The translations under genes were made by a program, and so were the position numbers. A stretch of DNA of 64,000 nucleotides, from the NCBI GenBank assembly GCA_003116875.1, contig BCKT01000002.1, positions 248,001 through 312,000 on the forward strand, written 5' to 3'. A model generated the notes under the pieces. The model had not been told where the DNA came from, did no database searches, and worked only from the letters and a program-made list of their open reading frames with translations. This document shows, piece by piece, positions 8,265 through 23,672 of the stretch. Source of the DNA: Takashimella koratensis. Its lineage: Eukaryota > Basidiomycota > Tremellomycetes > Trichosporonales > Tetragoniomycetaceae. Numbering within the stretch: the first letter of the stretch is position 1; every line of letters starts with the position of its first letter.

Positions 8265-10069
8265 ATGTCGTGCTGCGGCGGCAAAAACTGCTCTTCCTCT
8301 TCTTTTCCCGCGCCTACCTCCGCGTGCGGGTCCGGCTCTGGCGCGTGTTGCGGCGGGTCCAAGTGTGGACGCGGTACCACTGCCACGGCATCTACCAGTC
8401 TTCTCAACCGGGCGGCCACTAATGGCGCTTCCACCCCCACATCCGATGCCCCTTCGTACGGCGCTGTACAGACGACGAGCGGCGAGTCCGTTAAACTTCG
8501 TGGTGGCGCGAAACAGCACGCGCCCAAGGGCCAAGCCAAATCCATGGGCTCTATCTGGCCAGTCAACGCTATCTTAGCCCCCACGACGCCGGGGGCTATG
8601 CGCGTTGAGGATTTGGTCTCACACGAGGATCCATTGGGGACCAAATGTGGAGCAAATCACAGGACCGATGGACAGTGCTGTGAGTGACGAATCGCAGAGA
8701 TAAGGGTAGAGAATCGAGATTGATTGTGTGGTCGAGACGTTGGGCGATTTGGCTGACGTTACTAGGTAAAGACCTCAAGGGAGACGACGAGCGCCACCTG
8801 ATCGACCCGGACATTGTTCGCGACATGTAAGTTGGAGCTAACTTGTATGAATCCTCCTCCTCCTCTCATCACTGACATTCCCAGCATCATCGGCCTATCT
8901 GACGGACTCACCGTCCCATTCGCACTCACCGCGGGCCTCTCGTCCATCGGTTCTTCCAAGCTCGTCGTCACTGGTGGTCTTGCCGAACTCTGCGCGGGCG
9001 CTATCTCCATGGGCCTTGGAGGGTTTCGTGAGTTTCTCCTTTGTCACATACTCTACGACTTTAAGTTAACATTGCTGACAATGTCGCTTCTTCTGCTACA
9101 CCTTGCCATTGCCGTCGCTCTTGATCTCCCTATTCCTTCTTCTTACCTCGCTCGCATCACCCCTGCTCTCGTTACTCCTACCTTGGCTCCGGTCGCTACG
9201 CTCGCGATGATCGAGTAGTCGCCTCCCAAGCCGAGCTCGACCACTTCCACTACCTCCGTAAACAGACCGCGGCGCGTGTCCTCCGTTCCTGCGCAGGCGA
9301 GATGGAACGTGAAGTGCATGCGATCCTCGGTCCTCTCGGCGTCAAGGAGGCTCTGTCGCGTTTAATCGCCGGCGACTTGAGGTCGATCGAGGACGAGAGT
9401 TATGCACCCCAGGACGGAGTAGGGAGCGAGGGCGTTGTCGCGTCCACGAGAAGGGCAAGGAGCGGAGCAGGAGGGGATGAAGAGGCCGGTGTTAAAGGAG
9501 ATCCGAATATGGGGTTGACTGCGTTCTTGTTGAAGTTTGGAGAGGGTTTGGGTGAGTCTTTGCTCTCCGTATCGGTGCCTTTCCGTCGCTCTGGTAGTTT
9601 ACGTTGAGGCGCTGTTATCGACTACCAACAAAAGTACACAGCTGACATCTATCTTCCCTCTTTCCAATACCACGACCACAGAGGAAGTCCCCCGATCCCG
9701 CCTTTGGGTATCCGCTCTCACCATCGGCCTATCGTACTTTATCGGTGGTCTTATCCCTCTCGTTCCTTATATGATGACATCAACAGCCAACGAGGGTCTT
9801 CTCATCTCGGCCGTAGTAACTTGTGTCATCTTGCTCATCTTTGGCGGTGTCAAGACGTACTTCACGTAAGTGATATACTGGCTTCAAAGGCATAATTCGG
9901 GGAGGAGGGAGGGGGGGGGAATTGACAAATTGTGCTGATGATGATACGCAGCGGAGCAACGGGAGGGTACGGAGGGTATCTCTGGGGATCGATCAGTACC
10001 ATGGTCGTGGGCGGTCTCGCTGCCGGTGCAGCATACGGTCTCGTCAAGCTTCTCGACGTGCAGGAATAA
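8265..10069 (+). CDS. CCC1: CCC1/VIT1-family vacuolar iron/manganese transporter with Cys-rich N-terminal tail
   Basis: Members of this family carry Fe2+/Mn2+ from the cytosol into the vacuole. Helix 1 is IIGLSDGLTVPFALTAGLSS, with the conserved Asp and the PFALTAGL core; SKLVVTGGLAELCAGAISMG forms the next helix. A charged cytosolic metal-binding stretch follows (ASQAELDHFHYLRKQTAARV, then EMEREVHAILGPLG). Three more helices come after it (LWVSALTIGLSYFIGGLIPL; LLISAVVTCVILLIFGGVKT; SISTMVVGGLAAGAAYGLVK) and the protein ends LLDVQE. The odd part is the roughly 150-residue N-terminal extension. It begins MSCCGGKNCSSSS and holds seven Cys in the first 34 residues. A second cluster (KCGANHRTDGQCCKD) lies just before helix 1. 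Five introns or so; the ATG at 8265 follows a pyrimidine leader. Confidence 0.9.
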
Positions 10070-10665
10070 TTTTGCACGCGGTGCACTTTACCAACCCGCG
10101 TATTGGATACTGTAGAACGAAATCAAATTCAACGACGATATCAACATTGAAACGAGATCAAACTCGACGTTTCACAAACAGAGAGTTATCACTCTACCTC
10201 CTCATTCGACCTGTTACTTTTCGCACTTTACTCGATACGAGCGAGTGTAGTGATTCTTTGAACTCTGGTTTAGCGTGTTTCTCTGCCAAGTGGGTTTTGT
10301 CACCTCAATGTTCGTGCTCAACTTTAGAACTCTTCCCCCTTCTGGACTTTTGTATCACGAATGTAACTTTTTTTATATAAAAACTACGTCTCACCCAACA
10401 CAACGAGGGGTCATTTGCTTTCGGGGCCGTTCGCTTTCGCCAGTTCCATACCAAGTCCCATATTGTGTAACGTGGAAAGGAAAAAAAGGTGCGATTGCAT
10501 CTGTATCTGATCTGATCCAGGTATAGTGTAAGGCGCATAATAGTGCAAGAGGAATGAAGCTCTGTCTCTGTCTCCATCTCTCCCTCTGACTCTCTCTCTC
10601 TCTCTCTGTGCCTCTCTCTCTGTGTCTCTGCGCGACTCGTTAGATCTCTCTGCATGTGTCTCGCT
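10070..10665. other. Intergenic region between convergent genes, with a CT-rich microsatellite
   Basis: 3' flank of CCC1 and of the GT90 gene. It holds a T/A-rich stretch near 10368-10385 and an imperfect CT/TCTG repeat at about 10555-10640. No coding region seen. Confidence 0.5.
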
Positions 10666-13600
10666 CTACTCGATATCAGCAACGATGGCAGCTGCGATAT
10701 CTGGGTCGAGACCACCTGCCGCCGCGGCAACACCAGCGGCGTGTGAGGATCCCGTCTGGGCGTGAACTGGGTCACGGTGCCATTCTTGCAAGACAAAGTC
10801 CTGTTCAAAAAAAAGAAGGATCAAGAGTTAACAGTTACGCAGAGTTACGCGAGATTTGAGGTTCAAAGGTAGCCAAGTAACCAGGCTAGAGAATGACCTA
10901 TCTTGGGAAAGGAAGTCAAGGGACAAAGGACTACTCACCATCTTGCCGTTATCGCGATCAGGCGAAACGAGACGCGCGTATTCGAGGTAAAGACGGAACA
11001 TGTAAATCTGGATATCCTCTCTTCGCCAAGCTATTTGTGCCAAAGGGTTGCAAGGGAGGAGGAAAGAGTTTATCAGTTGATGAGTACTATGCAATTCACA
11101 GACCAAGCTAAAGAGGTAGGGGAAGGTTGGTTATACGAAGAGAAGATGGGGCTGGACTTACTTCGCTCAACCCAGCATTGACCGTTCAATGCTATTCTCC
11201 TAGCGACCTCGTCGTGCGATCCCTTGCCTGACGGAGTCCCTCGGAAGCTATCCAATTGATCAGCCCGGTCCATGATCCTTCTTCTCTCTACCACTTACAA
11301 AGACATGATCGAGTAGAGTTCCGAATAGTCGACTTTTGAAGGAACGTATGCGAACCATTCCGGGAGGTATTGAGAGTCTGCAGATGGAGAAGGAGAATGG
11401 GATTAGTACTGAATAGATGAACAGTTCGACAAGCCACGCAAGGGGACGACGGGGGGTGGGAGGTCGGACTCACTCCATTCGGGGAAGATGGTGGCTTTGA
11501 CGACGACATTGAGACTAGCCATGAGTCTCGGGAATCGCGAACTCCAAGCGTTTCCATCAGTCTGTGTCGTTTTATCAGCAACGCAAATCGACTCGTAATC
11601 CTTCCAACCTTGCGACCACTTATCCCTCCCCCTCTCTTGCCTCTCCTTCCTTGCCTCGTGTTTACTCACGTCAAAGACATATTTGAACTGATTGGACCTT
11701 TCCGAATCATCTTTATCCGCAAAATCAATTTCTTTCTCCATAGCATCACAAGATCCATCTCCCCAATCGCATTGCCAATTCCCACCCGCGAGTTTCGTGT
11801 CCATGTAATATTCGCCCAATTGTCGCATGGAACCTCGAGTGAGTTCAGCTTCACCTGTCGCTCCGATCGGGTTGAGGACATCAATCATCTTGCTAGATTT
11901 GTCGTTGGTTAAAAAGTGTAGACGTTCACGGTGGTTCTCGCGCCATCGTTTACCGGCCCCTTCGTTGTGGTTCATCCCCGTAGCCAAGCCGCGCTGAATA
12001 CCGAGTCAGCACAACTTTCAGAGCCCGAGAGCCAGCGTTGGATTGACCCCCAGTTCACGTCTTGCTGCAGGCAACCCGCTCCGACTCGTACTCACCCAGT
12101 AGAGCTTGCCGCTCTTCCTGCCCCACTCCGGGTCGTGGCCCACATCGTCGCGTCTACCATCACGCCCGACCGGAGTGATGGGGATATCGCCGTGCAGCGC
12201 CGTCTTGGACGGAACGAGAATCGGGAAGAGTTTCGTGTGTGGCTTGGGGTGGGTGTTCTCGTCCTTCTCCTCGAGGAACATGCCATGCAAGTCCATAAGC
12301 TGGATGGTGGTCAGTGAGGGACTTTAAAGGCCGGGTGAATTGCTGGCTCACCGAAGGGTGGTCGCAAACGTTCATCGCGGCGACGTGTGCAGAGATGAAA
12401 GTATCGGCAGCAGCTAGAGTCGGGGGTCAGCGGATGTCCTGAGGCGACGAAGAATTCAAAAGTTCCCGTCGTTACTCACTCTCTTCTTTGATGCCCTTGT
12501 TGAGAGCCGAGTTGGGCGAGCAAGCCTTTGTGTAGTCGTTCTCCGGGCGGTCCTCCTCGTTGGGGTGAGCAACGACTGTCAAGGTCAGCTCACTGTTCGG
12601 TTCACGAGACTGTGGAACCAAGACCAACTCACCCTTGCCAGTGACAGCGGCATGAAGGAGCTCCACCTGTCGCTGGAAATCCAGCAACATCGTTGGCTGA
12701 TCATGGATCGTAAATGTTGCCCTAAACGATGGCAACATATTGATGAATGGTTCCAAGAGGTTGATTTGAGAGTCCGCACGAGGTCGACTCGCCCACCACG
12801 TGTCGCGAGAGTAGTCGTCATTCCACTGCAACTCGACTCGACCGTCGTGGACGATCAAGGTGAATGTCTCAGGGATGGTCTCGGCTTCTTCGGCGCGCTC
12901 TTGCATCGTGTTCACGGGGAGTGCGTAGAATGGGAGAAGAGCGGTCATGATGCTGCGGAATGTAAGCGGAGTTCAGGCGAGCAAGGAGTGGGGGAAAGGA
13001 GGTAAGAGACGTTGAAGAGCAAAGAATGACTCACGCGTCGTACTCGTCGGGGAGGAGGACGTTGTGAGTGCGAGCAAACTCCCACCTGCGCAGTGTCAGC
13101 GAGATCAAAGTAACCTGCCCGGAGTCCACTGACCAGTCGTCAAAGCCCTTGGGTGGGGGTCGTCCCCATTTCTCCTTGTAATAATCGACTGCCTGCTCAA
13201 GAGTCTTACTCTGCCTTGCCAACCTGTCGTTCCACTTGCGTTCCCCGTCCCTCAAGAGCCCGAGAATCGGGTGTGTAAAACCTGTCGGCATCTTCCTAGT
13301 AGTGTTGCTTGCCTCGGAGAACTCGTCGTCAAAGTCCGGATCGGCGTCACCGCCCGCTGGAGGTGCTCGGGCAGTCACGACTCCCGGTGAAACTTCGACG
13401 AGGTCGACGAGGGATGCGCGTTCTTGTTCAGCCGCAGAGAGTGCACCGAACGCAGAGAGGAAAAGGCAGTTCCCATCTTCGTCAAACTCCACCGGTCGAT
13501 CGGGGACGTTTGGGTCCAAGATAGGGGGAAGCCATTTCGATGGTGAGAAGTAGGACGAATCAGGTTCGTGGTGTGGGTACTGAGGAGTGAGAGCGGGAGG

Positions 13601-16278: not shown

Positions 16279-17717
16279 TCACTTCCGCCTCTCAAGTTTC
16301 CACTTCCACATCTTCCCTTCAAACCTCTTCCTCTCCCCATTTCGATCCTCTGGCTGACTCTCGTCCTCCACGAACCCTGCGTCCCTAACTTTCCGCGCCG
16401 ATCCTTTCCCCATGAGACCTTTGGTCGTTGCGAGGCGGGATTCGGCTTGGCGTAGGAGACGAAGACGCGCGAGGAGGGAGGAGAGCTCGGTGAGTAGTTC
16501 GAGGCGGTGAGCCTGTGTAGTGAGGACAAGACGGTTGAGATAGGTTGAAGGAAAAATTGGTCAGCCCGTCTCGTCTTATGAGATGTATTTGGTTGTGGAG
16601 TGTAGACTTACTCGGTTCTCAGTTTCCTCGGCGTCAAGGTCAGTCTCAGCGACATTTGGCCTAGGAACCTCGGTGACCTTCTTCGACTTGCGCCGTTTCG
16701 TATCAACCGGCTCTGCCCATCCCAGATCCACGACAGCGGCCTCTTCCACCTCCGCCTGCACCTCTTCCTCGGCTCCGTACGTGTCAACTGAACCACGCGA
16801 GGTCTTGTCAGCACTGACTCCATTTTCCCTACCAGGCCTCCTCTACCCCACGGAGCTACGTATTTGCCACCGGCGAGGTTAACTCACACTCTTCTTTCCC
16901 ATCGACAAAGACGACGTGACTCGTCAAACTCTCCCTCGCCTTCCCCTTGCCCTTCCCCTTGCTCGAGGTCGAGGTCTTGCCGCCCTCCGAGTCGATAGGG
17001 CGCACGACAAGACCCATTTTCGCAAGTCGCTCAACTTCGGCGAGTTCAGCGGCGGCATCCCATTCAGAGGACGAGGAGGGGCCGGAGGTAGGTGCAGAGA
17101 CTTCAAGTTCGGCGCGGATACGAGTGATCCTCTGATGCAGTTGTCAGTGTCTCTCACTACTACAAGGTCGCAGCACACCTAGCCTTCATCGTCCGCTCCA
17201 TCACTCGTCCCCCTCCCACACCCAGTCTTCAACCAACACCCCAACACGTTCAATCACATACCAACACTTACCTTCTCATCCTTTGCGATCTGCACTCTAA
17301 CATAACCGGCATCCTGGGTTTTCAAAATCTTAACCACATCCGTATCCAAACTCTCATTCCCCCTATCTGCAATTGCGACACCACCACTTGTCCTTCCTTT
17401 AACCATCCCCCAATAAAACTCATCCTTGTTCCTAAACGCTGCTTTCTCACGGAGTTTACGAATTCGATCTTGTTTCGATTTATAATCGCGAGCTCGGTGG
17501 ACGTAGTCTTTGTGTTTCTCGAGAAGACCGAGACGTTGCCGGTGGAGAGGCTGGGCACGTTCTTTGTGGTTCCGCCGAGCCATGGCGTCTAACGCGAGGG
17601 AAGCGACCGAAGGGGGCAGGGAAAGAGACGAGGAGAGGATGGGGAAGCGAAGTGATGGTTAGCGAAGAACAAGGGAGCGAGAACGTGAGACTCACTGCGC
17701 AGAGACGAGTTGACCAT
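16279..17717 (-). CDS. UTP11: UTP11, U3 snoRNP / small-subunit processome protein
   Basis: Needed for early 18S rRNA processing in the nucleolus. The conserved N-terminus is [10 protein letters not shown], then [40 protein letters not shown]. The C-terminus ([10 protein letters not shown], then [10 protein letters not shown]) matches the family end. I place the start at 17717 in a 22-base first exon. Splicing it (donor at 17695, acceptor just before the codon upstream of 17583) gives [20 protein letters not shown], which resembles the usual Utp11 beginning. The ATG at 17583 is the alternative and would cut off this part. The middle is extended by acidic and Lys/Ser-rich low-complexity sequence. 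Divergent from the ABC-COX10 gene. Confidence 0.9.
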
Positions 17718-18225: not shown

Positions 18226-21200
18226 ATGGCCGCGCCGAGCGGAGTTGTGCTCGCCTCGTCTGTCTTCCGCTCCCTCCGCACTCCCCTCCCCAACGCTCTT
18301 GCATCTTCCAGCTCCTCGCGTCCTCTCACTGCCCAGCCAGGTCCGAGCCGAGCCTACGCTAGCAGCTTGAGATCTCTCCACACCCTCCCGATCACATCAG
18401 GACCTCGTGCGCCCCCCATCTCGAGCCCGTCAGCAACTCGATCGTTTAGTCGGACACTGGCTGCCTCTGCTTTCGGTCGTCCTACCCTGCCTTCGCCTGG
18501 ACCGGCCCCGGTCCGGCTACCATGGACACTTCAGGCTTCTCGGCGCCCCAAGTCGACCGACGCGGCGGAGGAGAAGAAGCCCGTCTCAGCTCCCTCCACC
18601 ACCGTTACTAAACCAACACAAAATTCAGACTCCTCACCACCACCACCTTCCTCCTCCTCCTCACCTTCCACCACCTCCTCTTCCGCTTCACCCCCCGCTG
18701 TCCTCCCAGCCGGTTCCGTCCCCTCGGCGCCTCCTAAATCTACCACCCCACCCAAGACCGACACCGCGTCCGTCTACAAGCTCATCTCCCTCGCTGCTCC
18801 GCAATGGCGGCTGATGAGCATCGGCGTTGTCTGCTTGTCGATCGGGACAGGAGTTAGCTTGTCTGTCCCCTGGGCAATCGGAAGAATTATCGATTTCTTC
18901 GCACCAGGTTCGGGCCAGACTCTCTTGTTTGGTTTACCGCTGGAACAGGCAGCAGGTGCCTTGGGACTGTTGTTGTTCGTTGGCGTCGTAGCGAATGCAG
19001 GGAAGAGTATCGCCCTGCGACTTGCGGGGCAAAAGACCGTCGCGCAGATCAGGTAAGCAGGGCGCTGTTTGTGTTACCAATGTTGGGTTAGTGCTAACTC
19101 GGGTTCATGTGTAGGAACAAGACCTACGGTAAATACCTCGCACTCCCACCTGCGCACATTGAGCAAGCCGGCGTCGGTGATGCTCTTTCCCGGCTCGGTC
19201 AAGACTCTTCCATCGTTGGCCAATCGCTCTCCGAGAATCTCGGCGAGGGTCTCAAAGCCGTAATCGGTGCCGTCGTCTCGGTTGGAGCGATGTACCTAAT
19301 CTCTCCTAAACTTTGCGCTGTCATGCTCTGTCTCTTCCCACCCATCTCGATCGCGTCTTACTTTTACGGTCGATACATTCGAAACCTATCCCTCAAGACC
19401 CAAGAGGCACTAGGGAACATGACAAAATTAGGCGAAGAACGACTCTCGGCACATAGGACGGTCACAGCTTCTAATACACAGGCAGCGGAACGGAAATTGT
19501 TTGCAGGGAAAGTTGAAGGAGTTTTTAGTCTTCAGAGGAAAGAGACTTGGGCAAACGGGATATTTCAAAGTGCGAATGAATTCGCAGGTGATATCGCCAT
19601 GATCGCGTTGTTGATCTATGGAGGTTTTTTGGTGAAAAGAGGGGAAGTGTCTGTAGGTGATATGACGACTTCGTTGATTTACGTCAACTGGATCGAGTAT
19701 AGTTTGAACAGTGAGTGGACCTGGGCAAGGTAGAGCATGAGCCTCGTGAGGACGGGGTAGCATTGATACTGCGATGCTTGAGGGCATGACATCCGCTAAC
19801 ACACACACCCAGCTCTCGCCGGCTTCTTTACCGGCCTCATGCGAGGTGTTGGCGCCTCGCAACGAATTATCAGCCTCCACTCGATGCCTTCGCCTATCCC
19901 GCTCTCCATCGGCGCGCCCGTACCCGGTACGACTTCGGGTGCGATCGAACTCAGGGACGTCTCGTTTGCCTATCCTTCTCGACCGGATGTCAAGGTTCTT
20001 GATGGTGTGAACATGCGTATCGACCAGGGCGAGCAGGTTGCACTTGTGTACGTCTTTCACCCCCCTCACCAATTGAGTTTTGCTGACCCCCTGTAGCGGA
20101 GGCAGCGGTAGCGGAAAGAGTTCCATCCAACTCCTTCTTCTGCGGTTCTACGACCCGACCAGTGGTAAAGTCCTCTTCGACAACCACTCGATTGTCGATT
20201 TTGAGCCCGAATCCTGGCGCGCTCGAATCGGTTACGTTCCCCAAGATCCCGTCCTCTTTGGCGGGACGATCGAGGAGAATATCAAGTACGGACACCCGGA
20301 AGCGTCAAGGGAAGATGTGGTCCGTGCTGCGAAAGTCGCGCATTGCGATTTCATTGAGAGGTTGCCAGAGGGGTACGAGACGGTCATTACCAAGGCGAGC
20401 TTGTCAGGTGGACAGAGGCAGAGGATCGCGATTGCAAGGGCGTTGGTGGGGAAACCATCGGTGTTGCTTATGGATGAAGCGACCAGTAAGTGGACTAAAT
20501 CACGTTGGGGTAAAGGACGTTTACTGATCGATTCAGGTGCTTTGGACTCGGAATCTGAGCGAGCGGTAAGTATCGCTCAGTCTCTCATTGAGATACCTGT
20601 CCCAAGCTTATTCTTCGCCTGAGCACTTGCTGACCCAATCTTCAGGTGAATGCCGCCCTCGAAGCCCTCTTCGCTGATTCTGAAATCACCGTCATTCTCA
20701 TCGCCCACCGTCTCTCTTCCATCGCCCAAGCCGACCGCGTCATTTACCTCGAGGCTGGACAGGTCATGGAGGATTCAACGTATGACGATCTGATTTCCCG
20801 ACCGCATGGGCGGTTCAGGAAGATGGTTGAGGGACAGATGGCGACGCTCGAGCCGGCAACGGAAGAGGAGCCGCACCATGATGAGCAGAATGGGCAAGGG
20901 CAGAGTGGGTCTGAGGGTGAGAAAGATAAAGTCGACCAACCAGTTGTCAACGTCACGACCCAGGGCCGAGACGCACCACGCCAAATCAGCGCCTCGTCTT
21001 CCCCATTCAGTGTCCACGGGCAACGTCGATCCGCACACACCCACGCCCTGACCAACTCCTCTACCTCTCATACCCGCCCGTTCTTCTCTTCCCACTCCGC
21101 ACAGCACCCCGCACTCCGCTCGGCACATACGACCGACGACTTTCGTACTGTCGCCGAAGCATCGAGCGCACCTGGGTCCCCTCTTCTCAACCTTGACCTC

Positions 21201-22322
21201 GGCGCCCCTTCTCCCCCTTCGGCGCCATTCACAGCTTACCGTCCTCTCCCGCCGCTCACCCTTCGCCGCCTCGTCGGAGTCTACTCTCAACTCTCCAAAC
21301 GCAACTTGTCCATCCTCATGACTCTCACCGCAACCACTGGTCTCGCGCTCTCCCCTCTCCCCCTCTCCCTCCCTCTCCTCCTCAACCTCACACTCGGAAC
21401 CTTCCTCACTTCCGCCGCGGCGAACACGTTCAACCAGATCCTCGAAGTCCCCCTCGACGCACAGACCCCACGTACACGGACCCGCCCACTAGTGGCTCGT
21501 CGCGTATCACCCTTGCACGCCGCGTGCTTTGGCGTCGTCTGCGCGCTCATCGGCGCCGTCGTGCTGTGGTACGGATGTAACCCGACCACCGCGGCACTTG
21601 GGGTCGGGAACTTGTTACTTTACTCGGCAGTGTATACACCGATGAAGCGGTTCTCGGTGGCGAATACGTGGATAGGTGCAGTGGTTGGCGCGATTACCCC
21701 GCTCATGGGTTGGACAGCGACAGGTGGTTCGTTGTGGCCTACTCCCGACCAACCAATCATCTTCCACCTCCCCTTCTCCTCCACCTATTCCAACACTTCA
21801 CCTTCTCCCTCCACCCCCTACACACCCATCCCGTCCTCTCTCGTCTCGATTGGCGACACCACCCTCGACCCTCGTCCGAACCCCCTCACTCCACTCACCC
21901 TCTTTGCCCTTCTCTTCTCCTGGCAATTCCCCCACTTTAACGGTCTATCACACATGATTCGACCCTACTACGCTCTTTCCGGCTACCCAATGCTCTCTGT
22001 CCTCTCTCCACGACTCAACGCTCTCGTTTCCCTCCGACACGCGATCCTCCTCATCCCTATCACCCAGGTCCTTGCTCCCCTCTCGGGCTCAGTCGACTGG
22101 AGCTTCGCCATCACTTCCGCCATCCCCAATGCGCTGTTCCTCCAGGCCGCATGGAAGTTTAGACAACAGGTAAATGAAGTCAACGCGAAGAAAGTTTTCT
22201 TCGTGAGCTTGTGGTATTTGCCAGTGGTATTGGGGTTGATGTTGGTGCATAAGAACGTAGCGGCGTGGGTGAGGTCGAGAAGCGAGAAGGAAGAAGATCG
22301 GATAGAGGGGAAGGTGGCGTAA
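18226..22322 (+). CDS. Fusion: mitochondrial ABC half-transporter (MDL1/ABCB10 type) + COX10-type heme O synthase
   Basis: The start at 18226 has strong context (GCAGCCATGG) and gives an Arg/Ser-rich, acid-poor N-terminus typical of mitochondrial import. Exons to about 20565 encode a full ABC half-transporter. Its membrane domain includes YKLISLAAPQWRLMSIGVVC and NKTYGKYLALPPAHIEQAGV. Its nucleotide-binding domain has Walker A GGSGSGKSS (about 20098), signature LSGGQ (20401) and Walker B VLLMDEATS (20461), then SALDSESERA. The last exon (20646-22322) starts with NAALEALFADSEITVILIAH (H-loop) and finishes the domain. It then runs without a stop through a linker of about 135 residues into a complete protoheme IX farnesyltransferase: NTFNQILEVPLDA, RTRTRPL, YTPMKRFSVANTWIGAVVGA, SWQFPHFNGLSHMIRPYYAL, VNAKKVFFVSLWYLP. 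No in-frame Met lies between the end of the ABC domain and COX10 helix 1. Both partners are inner-membrane proteins with compatible matrix-side ends. Confidence 0.82.
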
Positions 22323-23672
22323 AGGTTGGGACGTTGGTATGAGAGGACGATTTAGTGCAGTGCACATAGAAATCACAATCACAAAGTGTCTTGTCTTTCT
22401 TGTCAAACACATACATATATACCCACGAGAATAAGAGGAGAGAGCAAGAAGAGGTTTCCTTATAGTGACGCCAAACAGACACATCTCAATTCATCCACTC
22501 ATTTCATAGCTTTGGTCTTACAGATGCAGACAAGCATACTATTTCGATATTGCGACATGGTTAGTCCGTCACTTCCCCGCCACACTCAAATCCGTCAGCA
22601 AAGCCAGTTTCGCTTCATCATCTTCAACTACCGACCGACCAGCTGCCGTATCTCCAACCGCTTCGAAATCAACCGACAATGATCCTCGTCCAGGACGTTA
22701 GGGGCGAATTTATCTTCTCCTCCTCTGCCTCCGAGCCGGTTCGACACCCGAGCCTGCGTGACGCCTCAACCACGACTGACGACCCCGACTCCCCAAAGCC
22801 TCCCTGTACCGCTTCGCACTACGAGTACCACGATCGCTCAGCCAGCCGTCCTCTTTTCATTGTTGAGGTTCCTTGCCGTTTGGCATAAGACCTTGGAGTG
22901 AATGCGTAGACTCAACCCTGGCGCTGACTAAGCCTGAGCAGAGCAAACCAAGATTCACACCCAGCTGTACCGCCGCCTTCGATTACTCTCCTTTTCGCTG
23001 TTGGCCGATTGCCGTCCCGACCGCCTAAGAGCCTACCAGCCAGGTAGTCAAAAAGTTTTACCTCTCCTTTGATAGGCTCGACACGGTCGATCCCGGGAGG
23101 TAGACAGGGAAGACGCGGGGGGAGGAAGAGAGGGCAAGGGCGGGACTTCATGTTCATGTTGTTTACTTCATCCTTTGTACTATGGCGTGCTCAGATATGT
23201 AGCGTCCTCTTTGCTAGCCTCTTGGAGGATATGGAGGGGGGGGGGGGGGGGGGGGTAAGAAGATAAATTGGTGACTTTGACAAGCGCCACGAACTGGAGG
23301 TTTTGCAACCCTACGGCTTTTCTCAATAACCAATACGTCGCGGCTAAGGAATCAAAGCTGTGTGCAACAAATACTTGTCTGGCGACCACGCCTGGGAATC
23401 GCTCGAACCTTCAAGAGAGGGAACGCTATCGCCCGAAGCATGGACATATCTCGCCGAAGTCGTTGAAAGTGCGAAATCGTATAGTACTGAAACTGATGTG
23501 CATATCCTCGTTATCGGCTATTGAGCCTGGAAGCTCGATTCCCAAATTCCGCCGTGTTTCATGACTTGACCGCCACACCGAACACGCCGGCAACCAAGTT
23601 TCACCTCTTTCACTTCATTACACCTCACCCAACTTTCGACTCACATACCACCTCTTCCTTGTCGTCTGCACC
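22323..23672. other. Intergenic, 1.35 kb, with a 20-G run; no gene seen
   Basis: No frame on either strand has recognisable protein features. A homopolymer of 20 G occupies 23236-23255. A C/T-rich leader precedes 23673. Confidence 0.5.
23236..23255. repeat. Homopolymer of 20 G
   Basis: Uninterrupted G run. The length may be unreliable in sequencing. A G-quadruplex is possible on the + strand. Confidence 0.85.

What the first reader, a model, noticed from the sequence alone, without database searches (positions are those of the whole stretch)
18226..22322. ABC half-transporter fused in frame to COX10-type heme O synthase
The last exon (20646-22322) is one open frame. It completes the ATP-binding domain (H-loop HRLSS) and then encodes a whole protoheme IX farnesyltransferase with all its signature motifs. 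There is no stop and no in-frame Met between the two parts. In other fungi I know these as separate genes. A mitochondrial ABCB10-like exporter is linked to heme biosynthesis, and COX10 makes heme O, so a single polypeptide could couple heme supply to its farnesylation. Topology fits: the ATP domain and the COX10 N-terminus both face the matrix.
Basis: partly seen in the sequence, partly recalled or inferred. Interest (0 to 1): 0.87.

Follow-up and report, generated by a model that had tools for sequence, protein, structure and literature searches.

The report
Yeast transporter–COX10 tandem mitochondrial protein
In a large group of basidiomycete yeasts the enzyme that makes heme O is encoded as the second half of a mitochondrial transporter, apparently as one long precursor that is probably cut in two inside the mitochondrion.

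Summary
Six exons (18226-22322) encode 1250 residues: an ABCB10/MDL1-like half-transporter followed in frame by a complete COX10 (heme O synthase), the only COX10 found in the 25 Mb genome. The fusion is not peculiar to this assembly: of 63 long COX10 relatives found, 47 also carry the ABC ATPase domain, and the named ones belong to Tremellales or Trichosporonales. COX10 of Naganishia, Phaffia and mushrooms is standalone and lies outside that clade. The ABC half is not the ordinary MDL1, which is separate on contig C8, but a diverged duplicate.

Coupling in one lasting polypeptide is not the best reading. The linker keeps what looks like the rear of the ancestral COX10 presequence (GQRRxxHT, one R and the H identical in 50 of 50 non-redundant linkers; often RPFFS after it) in a predicted disordered stretch, while the amphipathic targeting helix is mostly gone. 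This fits a tandem precursor cut in the matrix, like Arg5,6. In the pathogenic Cryptococcus clade the halves are annotated as separate proteins, the COX10 with a start resembling that of the ABC protein. Cleavage is inferred, not shown. Five searches of open-access papers found no description of this fusion.

The parts
18226..19052 (+). Exon 1: N-terminal presequence-like region (RAYASS at residue 42, RSLHT at 49), low-complexity stretch, start of ABC membrane domain
19115..19710 (+). Exon 2: ABC membrane domain
19813..20047 (+). Exon 3: stretch after the membrane domain and start of ATP-binding domain
20097..20485 (+). Exon 4: Walker A GGSGSGKS (residue 554, begins at the exon junction), LSGGQ (655), Walker B (676)
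20537..20565 (+). Exon 5: 29-base exon of the ATP-binding domain
20646..22322 (+). Exon 6: end of ATP-binding domain (HRLSS at 20706-20720), linker and whole COX10, one open frame to the stop
20841..21017 (+). Linker, front part (residues 758-816): variable tail of the ABC half, 11 D/E against 4 K/R
21018..21041 (+). Linker block GQRRSAHT (residues 817-824), read as the retained end of the COX10 presequence; candidate processing region
21075..21092 (+). Linker motif RPFFSS (residues 836-841), aligned with the [FY]F motif near the N-terminus of standalone COX10; second candidate processing site
21324..22211 (+). COX10 (UbiA) domain, residues 919-1214

Best explanation
The gene encodes a mitochondrial tandem precursor. 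The N-terminal presequence of the ABC half brings the whole chain to the mitochondrion. The linker between the halves is the tail of the ABC protein joined to the rear of the ancestral COX10 presequence. A matrix protease, most likely the mitochondrial processing peptidase MPP (possibly with Icp55), cuts in the disordered linker at or near QRRxxHT / RPFFS (residues 817-841), releasing an ABCB10/MDL1-like half-transporter that dimerises and a mature COX10 that makes heme O. Shown here: the in-frame fusion, its conservation, one clade of fused COX10s, the retained presequence-end block, and a helix score that drops in the linkers. Inferred: one transcript, import, cleavage, the protease, and that both products are active.
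For: Fusion conserved: 47 of 63 long COX10 relatives carry PF00005, 28 of them full length with PF00664 (only the 7990 best candidates were scored); 70 of 79 sequences with a COX10 anchor have the ATPase tail upstream. The 31 fused COX10s of the tree and two unfused ones form one clade, 100/99. [KR]R.{1,3}H[TSN] in 68 of 70 linkers (200 rounds of shuffles: mean 0.8, maximum 5); R-x-[FY]-type motif in 52 of 70 (mean 4.4, maximum 11). After removing near copies (70 to 50), R820 and H823 are in 50 of 50, while residues 757-804 average 0.29. In an alignment with 20 chosen standalone COX10s the block and RPFFS fall on the presequence end of several and on their [FY]F motif. R.{1,2}H[TS] is 13 times denser in the first 100 residues of 211 proteins of the set (31 of 211 have it) than in the rest, 1.61 against 0.12 per 1000 residues. 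Best amphipathic helix score above 0.45 in 5 of 68 linkers, 26 of 45 standalone COX10 N-termini, 20 of 27 ABC N-termini; window N-terminus 0.49, window linker 0.20. Both linker sites lie in the stretch 581-642 with pLDDT under 50 of the model of P0028. Precedent: MPP cuts Arg5,6 internally (passages of PMC8847149).
Against: No transcript or protein data. The RPFFS-type motif is missing in 18 of 70 linkers, including Cryptotrichosporon argae, the relative nearest by identity. The rear of the linker (about 860-907) is conserved too, so the block may be kept for another role of the COX10 N-terminal region. No internal targeting helix was found by my score. Motifs and thresholds were chosen by me after seeing the alignment, and the sequences are related, so shuffles overstate significance.
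Confidence: 0.66

Rival explanations
1. The chain stays whole: an uncleaved bifunctional membrane protein in which the transporter and COX10 are held together, for example to hand heme b or a related substrate to COX10.
For: In-frame joining kept in many species; ABCB10 is reported as a partner of ferrochelatase, and how heme b reaches Cox10 is described as unknown (passages of PMC7140478). Matrix-side placement of both ends of the linker fits (recalled topology).
Against: Retained presequence end in the linker; two separate annotated proteins in the pathogenic Cryptococcus clade; the ABC half is a diverged duplicate of unknown substrate.
Confidence: 0.2
2. The genomic frame is joined, but the cell makes two products at the RNA or translation level: alternative splicing, a second promoter, or internal initiation.
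For: A GT...AG pair at 20917-20963 (47 bases) would shift the frame and end the ABC half at 21196. A Met at the very start of the linker (757 in the window) is shared by 0.68 of 50 non-redundant linkers. The annotated Dioszegia COX10 starts with a Met right at RPFFS.
Against: No in-frame Met at 758-916 in the window; a start at 757 would begin with the acidic tail, unlike a presequence. The 70 linkers hold 129 Mets where 191 are expected, a weak deficit. The 47-base pair is shorter than all five introns of the gene (49-102) and would give no COX10. A COX10 begun in the linker would mostly lack a targeting helix.
Confidence: 0.12
3. The fusion is an assembly or gene-model artefact.
For: Gene mergers are common in predicted fungal proteomes (recalled).
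Against: The last exon is one open frame in raw DNA, and of the 70 joined sequences 45 come from jgi, lgn or ena contigs, 24 from NCBI records and 1 is the window (sources as listed).
Confidence: 0.02

Closest known systems
Mitochondrial tandem precursors: Arg5,6 of S. cerevisiae, cut internally by MPP; Rsm22-Cox11, Etp1 and Atp25, in which the same types of motif were found in silico (passages of PMC8847149 citing Friedl et al. 2020; that paper itself was not held)
   Same: Two mitochondrial proteins in one nuclear frame, an N-terminal presequence, and a processing-site-like block between the parts; Cox11, like COX10, serves cytochrome oxidase assembly (recalled).
   Different: Here both parts are many-pass inner membrane proteins, the partner is an ABC half-transporter, the targeting helix before the block scores low, and one lineage appears to have split the parts again.
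COX10 / CtaB-CyoE heme O synthase (TIGR01473)
   Same: Complete UbiA-type domain above the curated cut-off; only copy found in the genome.
   Different: Has no start of its own in this gene; what looks like its presequence end lies inside a longer chain.
MDL1 / ABCB10 mitochondrial half-transporters
   Same: One membrane and one ATPase domain with Walker A, LSGGQ, Walker B and H-loop; among the half-transporters in the best 60 solved-structure matches the highest is ABCB10 (404 bits; ABCB8 284), below two-part ABCB1-type chains (up to 484).
   Different: Lies in its own long-stemmed clade, apart from the MDL1 genes of the same species.

Membership tests
Internally processed mitochondrial tandem precursor | Two complete proteins in one uninterrupted frame | tested here: met
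Internally processed mitochondrial tandem precursor | N-terminal presequence | tested here: met
   By sequence only: RAYASS and RSLHT in the first 55 residues, helix score 0.49 in the first 45; 20 of 27 ABC N-termini above 0.45
Internally processed mitochondrial tandem precursor | Presequence-like processing site between the parts | tested here: met
   By sequence only: block in 68 of 70 linkers, RPFFS type in 52 of 70
Internally processed mitochondrial tandem precursor | Internal targeting signal (iMTS-like), reported for known cases | tested here: inconclusive
   Only 5 of 68 linkers pass my helix score, but the score is crude, is not the published predictor, and covered only the 45 residues ending at the block
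Internally processed mitochondrial tandem precursor | Cleavage by MPP observed | not testable with these tools
   needs import assay or N-terminal proteomics
COX10 heme O synthase | Match to TIGR01473 above cut-off | tested here: met
   224.7 against 210.3 bits
COX10 heme O synthase | Groups with COX10 of relatives | tested here: met
ABCB10/MDL1 half-transporter | ABC_membrane plus ABC_tran with Walker A, LSGGQ, Walker B, H-loop | tested here: met
MDL1 (orthologous gene) | Groups with fungal MDL1 proper | tested here: not met
   Separate clade, 100/100 support; the C8 gene is the one in the MDL1 group

The most novel reading that the evidence does not exclude
The chain is not cut, or only partly: a duplicated ABCB10-type transporter has been recruited as a built-in partner of COX10 and channels a substrate (heme b or farnesyl diphosphate side) to the heme O active site, a transporter-enzyme unit of heme A synthesis kept since the ancestor of Tremellales and Trichosporonales.
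Probability: 0.13. Interest if true: 0.88.

Novelty: new variant of a known kind. Interest (0 to 1): 0.62.

Why it matters
COX10 is needed to make heme A for cytochrome oxidase, and how heme b reaches it is described as unknown (PMC7140478 passages). A conserved joining of COX10 to a duplicated ABCB10-like transporter points to a transporter whose supply is tied one-to-one to COX10, whether or not the chain is cut. It is also a natural experiment: joined in species of seven genera of Tremellales and Trichosporonales, annotated apart in one nested clade, so the need for joining can be tested. Many of the database entries seen here are named after only one of the two halves.

Tried and rejected
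Considered and rejected: assembly or annotation artefact; a second COX10 elsewhere; the C3 UbiA gene as COX10 (its pieces match the 4-hydroxybenzoate model best); the ABC half as plain MDL1. A Met deficit in the linkers was weak (129 seen, 191 expected) and I do not lean on it. The age of the ABC duplication is unresolved: grouping of the fused clade with Tremellomycete MDL1 plus Naganishia has support 70/29 only, and with the MDL1 paralogs alone p-AU 0.045. Whether the split in pathogenic Cryptococcus came by duplication with complementary loss or by use of a shared first exon could not be settled; no DNA of those species was at hand. Dioszegia is unclear: its annotated COX10 is short, its sister sequence P0068 is joined. 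No joined protein of Papiliotrema, Saitozyma or Tremella appears in the listings, although MDL1-type proteins of theirs do; those listings are capped, so this is open. Searches for gene numbers in C. neoformans led nowhere. One search was a script that failed and was repeated, mended.

Full report
Gene. Exons 18226-19052, 19115-19710, 19813-20047, 20097-20485, 20537-20565 and 20646-22322, all with GT-AG introns, give one frame of 1250 codons. Pfam finds the ABC membrane domain, the ABC ATPase domain and UbiA in that order, each above its cut-off. The second half passes the heme o synthase model TIGR01473. The first half holds Walker A, LSGGQ, Walker B and the H-loop.

Own genome. A COX10 query finds the window locus and one chance-level hit, E 3.19. 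The other UbiA gene, on C3, is of the 4-hydroxybenzoate type. An ABC query finds, besides other transporters, a separate gene on C8 whose exons are up to 62% identical, and which groups with the MDL1 genes of other basidiomycetes.

Relatives. Searching with residues 740-1250 among proteins of 0.55 to 1.75 times 1250 residues gave 63 proteins (the 7990 candidates sharing most words were scored); 47 have both UbiA and the ABC ATPase domain and 28 of these also the membrane domain. The other 16 have UbiA without the ABC domains. The 24 named ones are species of Cryptococcus, Kwoniella, Naematelia and Kockovaella and one isolate named Tremellales sp., and of Vanrija, Cutaneotrichosporon and Cryptotrichosporon; one species of each genus was looked up and lies in Tremellales or Trichosporonales. 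Using a COX10 anchor on the proteins in hand, 70 of 79 carry the ATPase tail before it; COX10s without that exact anchor were not counted, among them P0047, which is joined as well and has GQKREMHT in its linker. Of the 70, 24 are NCBI records, 45 come from jgi, lgn or ena contigs and one is the window. A search with the linker and COX10 part (860 hits, 120 listed) adds standalone COX10 from Naganishia (Filobasidiales), Phaffia (Cystofilobasidiales) and mushrooms. A search with the ABC part (7478 hits, 120 listed) shows the joined proteins first, two unjoined ones of the same kind (P0165, pathogenic Cryptococcus clade; P0166, Tremella mesenterica, marked partial), then MDL1-type proteins at about 53% identity and below. 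Papiliotrema, Saitozyma and Dioszegia show up there only with the MDL1 type, so whether they have the joined protein is open.

Trees. On the COX10 tree (44 rows chosen by me) the 31 fused rows and two unfused ones, from the pathogenic Cryptococcus clade and from Dioszegia, form one clade with support 100/99; Naganishia, Phaffia and mushrooms lie outside; the label needs three changes, which may be one gain and two losses. On the ABC tree (44 rows) the fused rows with P0165 and P0166 form one clade with 100/100 and a stem of 2.28 changes per column; the standalone genes of the same species group with Naganishia (92/93) in the other part of the tree, which also holds mushrooms and S. pombe mdl1. 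The joined transporter is thus a diverged duplicate. How old the duplication is remains open. In the ABC tree the window pairs with Cryptotrichosporon argae, weakly (82/41), inside a well supported group of eight rows whose named members are Trichosporonales (100/100); in the COX10 tree its place is not resolved.

Linker. Residues 757-804 are poorly conserved (mean 0.29 over 50 non-redundant linkers). Then comes GQRRxxHT, in which R820 and H823 are the same in 50 of 50, and RPFFS with R836 at 0.78; the stretch between them is variable, and the part from about 860 on, leading into COX10, is conserved again. [KR]R.{1,3}H[TSN] is in 68 of 70 linkers against a shuffled mean of 0.8; the R-x-[FY] type is in 52 of 70 against 4.4. 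Aligned with 20 chosen standalone COX10 N-termini, RPFFS falls on a shared [FY]F motif, and the arginine block falls near the presequence end of several, as in QNRRHSTAASALPLTYFTS of P0105; in others (for example P0102, P0115) the alignment is loose. R.{1,2}H[TS] is a presequence-zone motif in this set: 1.61 per 1000 residues in the first 100 residues of 211 proteins (31 of 211 have it) and 0.12 in the rest. The amphipathic helix that many standalone COX10s have at their start (26 of 45 above 0.45) is mostly absent in the 45 residues ending at the block (5 of 68; Mann-Whitney p 3e-9, rows not independent); ABC N-termini pass in 20 of 27. So the processing end of the presequence seems kept and the targeting part lost, which is what an internally cut precursor would need. 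AlphaFold2 on the Vanrija humicola protein P0028 (66 sequences, mean pLDDT 81.9, pTM 0.45) gives two mostly confident domains and a stretch 581-642 under 50, which holds QRRHAHT (619) and RRAYSS (631). The answer gave no error estimates between domains, so it says nothing on contact between the halves.

Split lineage. In the pathogenic Cryptococcus clade the COX10 (P0070, 485 residues, 66 member sequences) and the ABC protein (P0165, 725 residues, 49 members) are annotated apart. P0070 keeps the linker block (QKRSSHS, RPFFSAH). Its first 14 residues match those of P0165 in 9 places; the score 49 is the highest among 248 N-termini compared (next 39, mean 22.5) and was reached by 1 of 5000 shuffles. 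This suggests that the separate COX10 took over the start of the joined gene, by duplication and complementary loss or by use of a shared first exon. The two representatives may come from different species. If the annotation is right, the halves can be made apart, which speaks against an obligate single chain.

Literature. Searches of the open-access library for COX10 with ABC transporter, fusion and basidiomycete (none), Mdl1 with Cox10 and Cryptococcus (2 papers, listing seen only), COX10 with Tremellomycetes (none), a mixed query (577 papers, 20 listed, listing seen) and polyprotein with COX10 and others (none) gave no description of this fusion. In the Cryptococcus-Kwoniella comparative genomics paper PMC11185503 the terms cox10, heme, gene fusion and farnesyltransferase do not occur in the main text; in PMC5666163 cox10 does not occur. 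Subscription papers and preprints were not searched. Internal cutting of a tandem precursor by MPP is described in passages of PMC8847149.

Verdict. A real, conserved fusion gene, not noted in the papers searched, most likely working like a mitochondrial tandem precursor. Membership in that class is not proven, since cleavage was not observed and no internal targeting helix was found. The coupling idea remains possible but second.

Noticed in passing
G000:C8 about 9032-11147 (L048): Separate MDL1-type half-transporter with many short introns, grouping with the Cryptotrichosporon, Vanrija and Cutaneotrichosporon MDL1-type genes.
   Followed up: partly
P0070 and P0165 (pathogenic Cryptococcus clade): The halves are annotated as separate proteins whose first 14 residues resemble each other, a possible secondary split of the fused gene.
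   Followed up: partly
P0074 (Dioszegia hungarica): Annotated COX10 starts with Met right before SRPFFSAH, while its sister P0068 is joined to the ABC tail; truncated model or second split.
   Followed up: no
P0049, P0060, P0063: COX10 domains joined to other domains (PF02668; PF00569, PF13405 and others) in Ustilago loliicola and two MAG entries; may be merged gene models.
   Followed up: no
17254-17583, minus strand: Upstream open frame on the other strand whose start ([44 protein letters not shown]) looks like UTP11 (recalled, no search made).
   Followed up: no
23236-23255: Run of 20 G downstream of the fusion gene.
   Followed up: no
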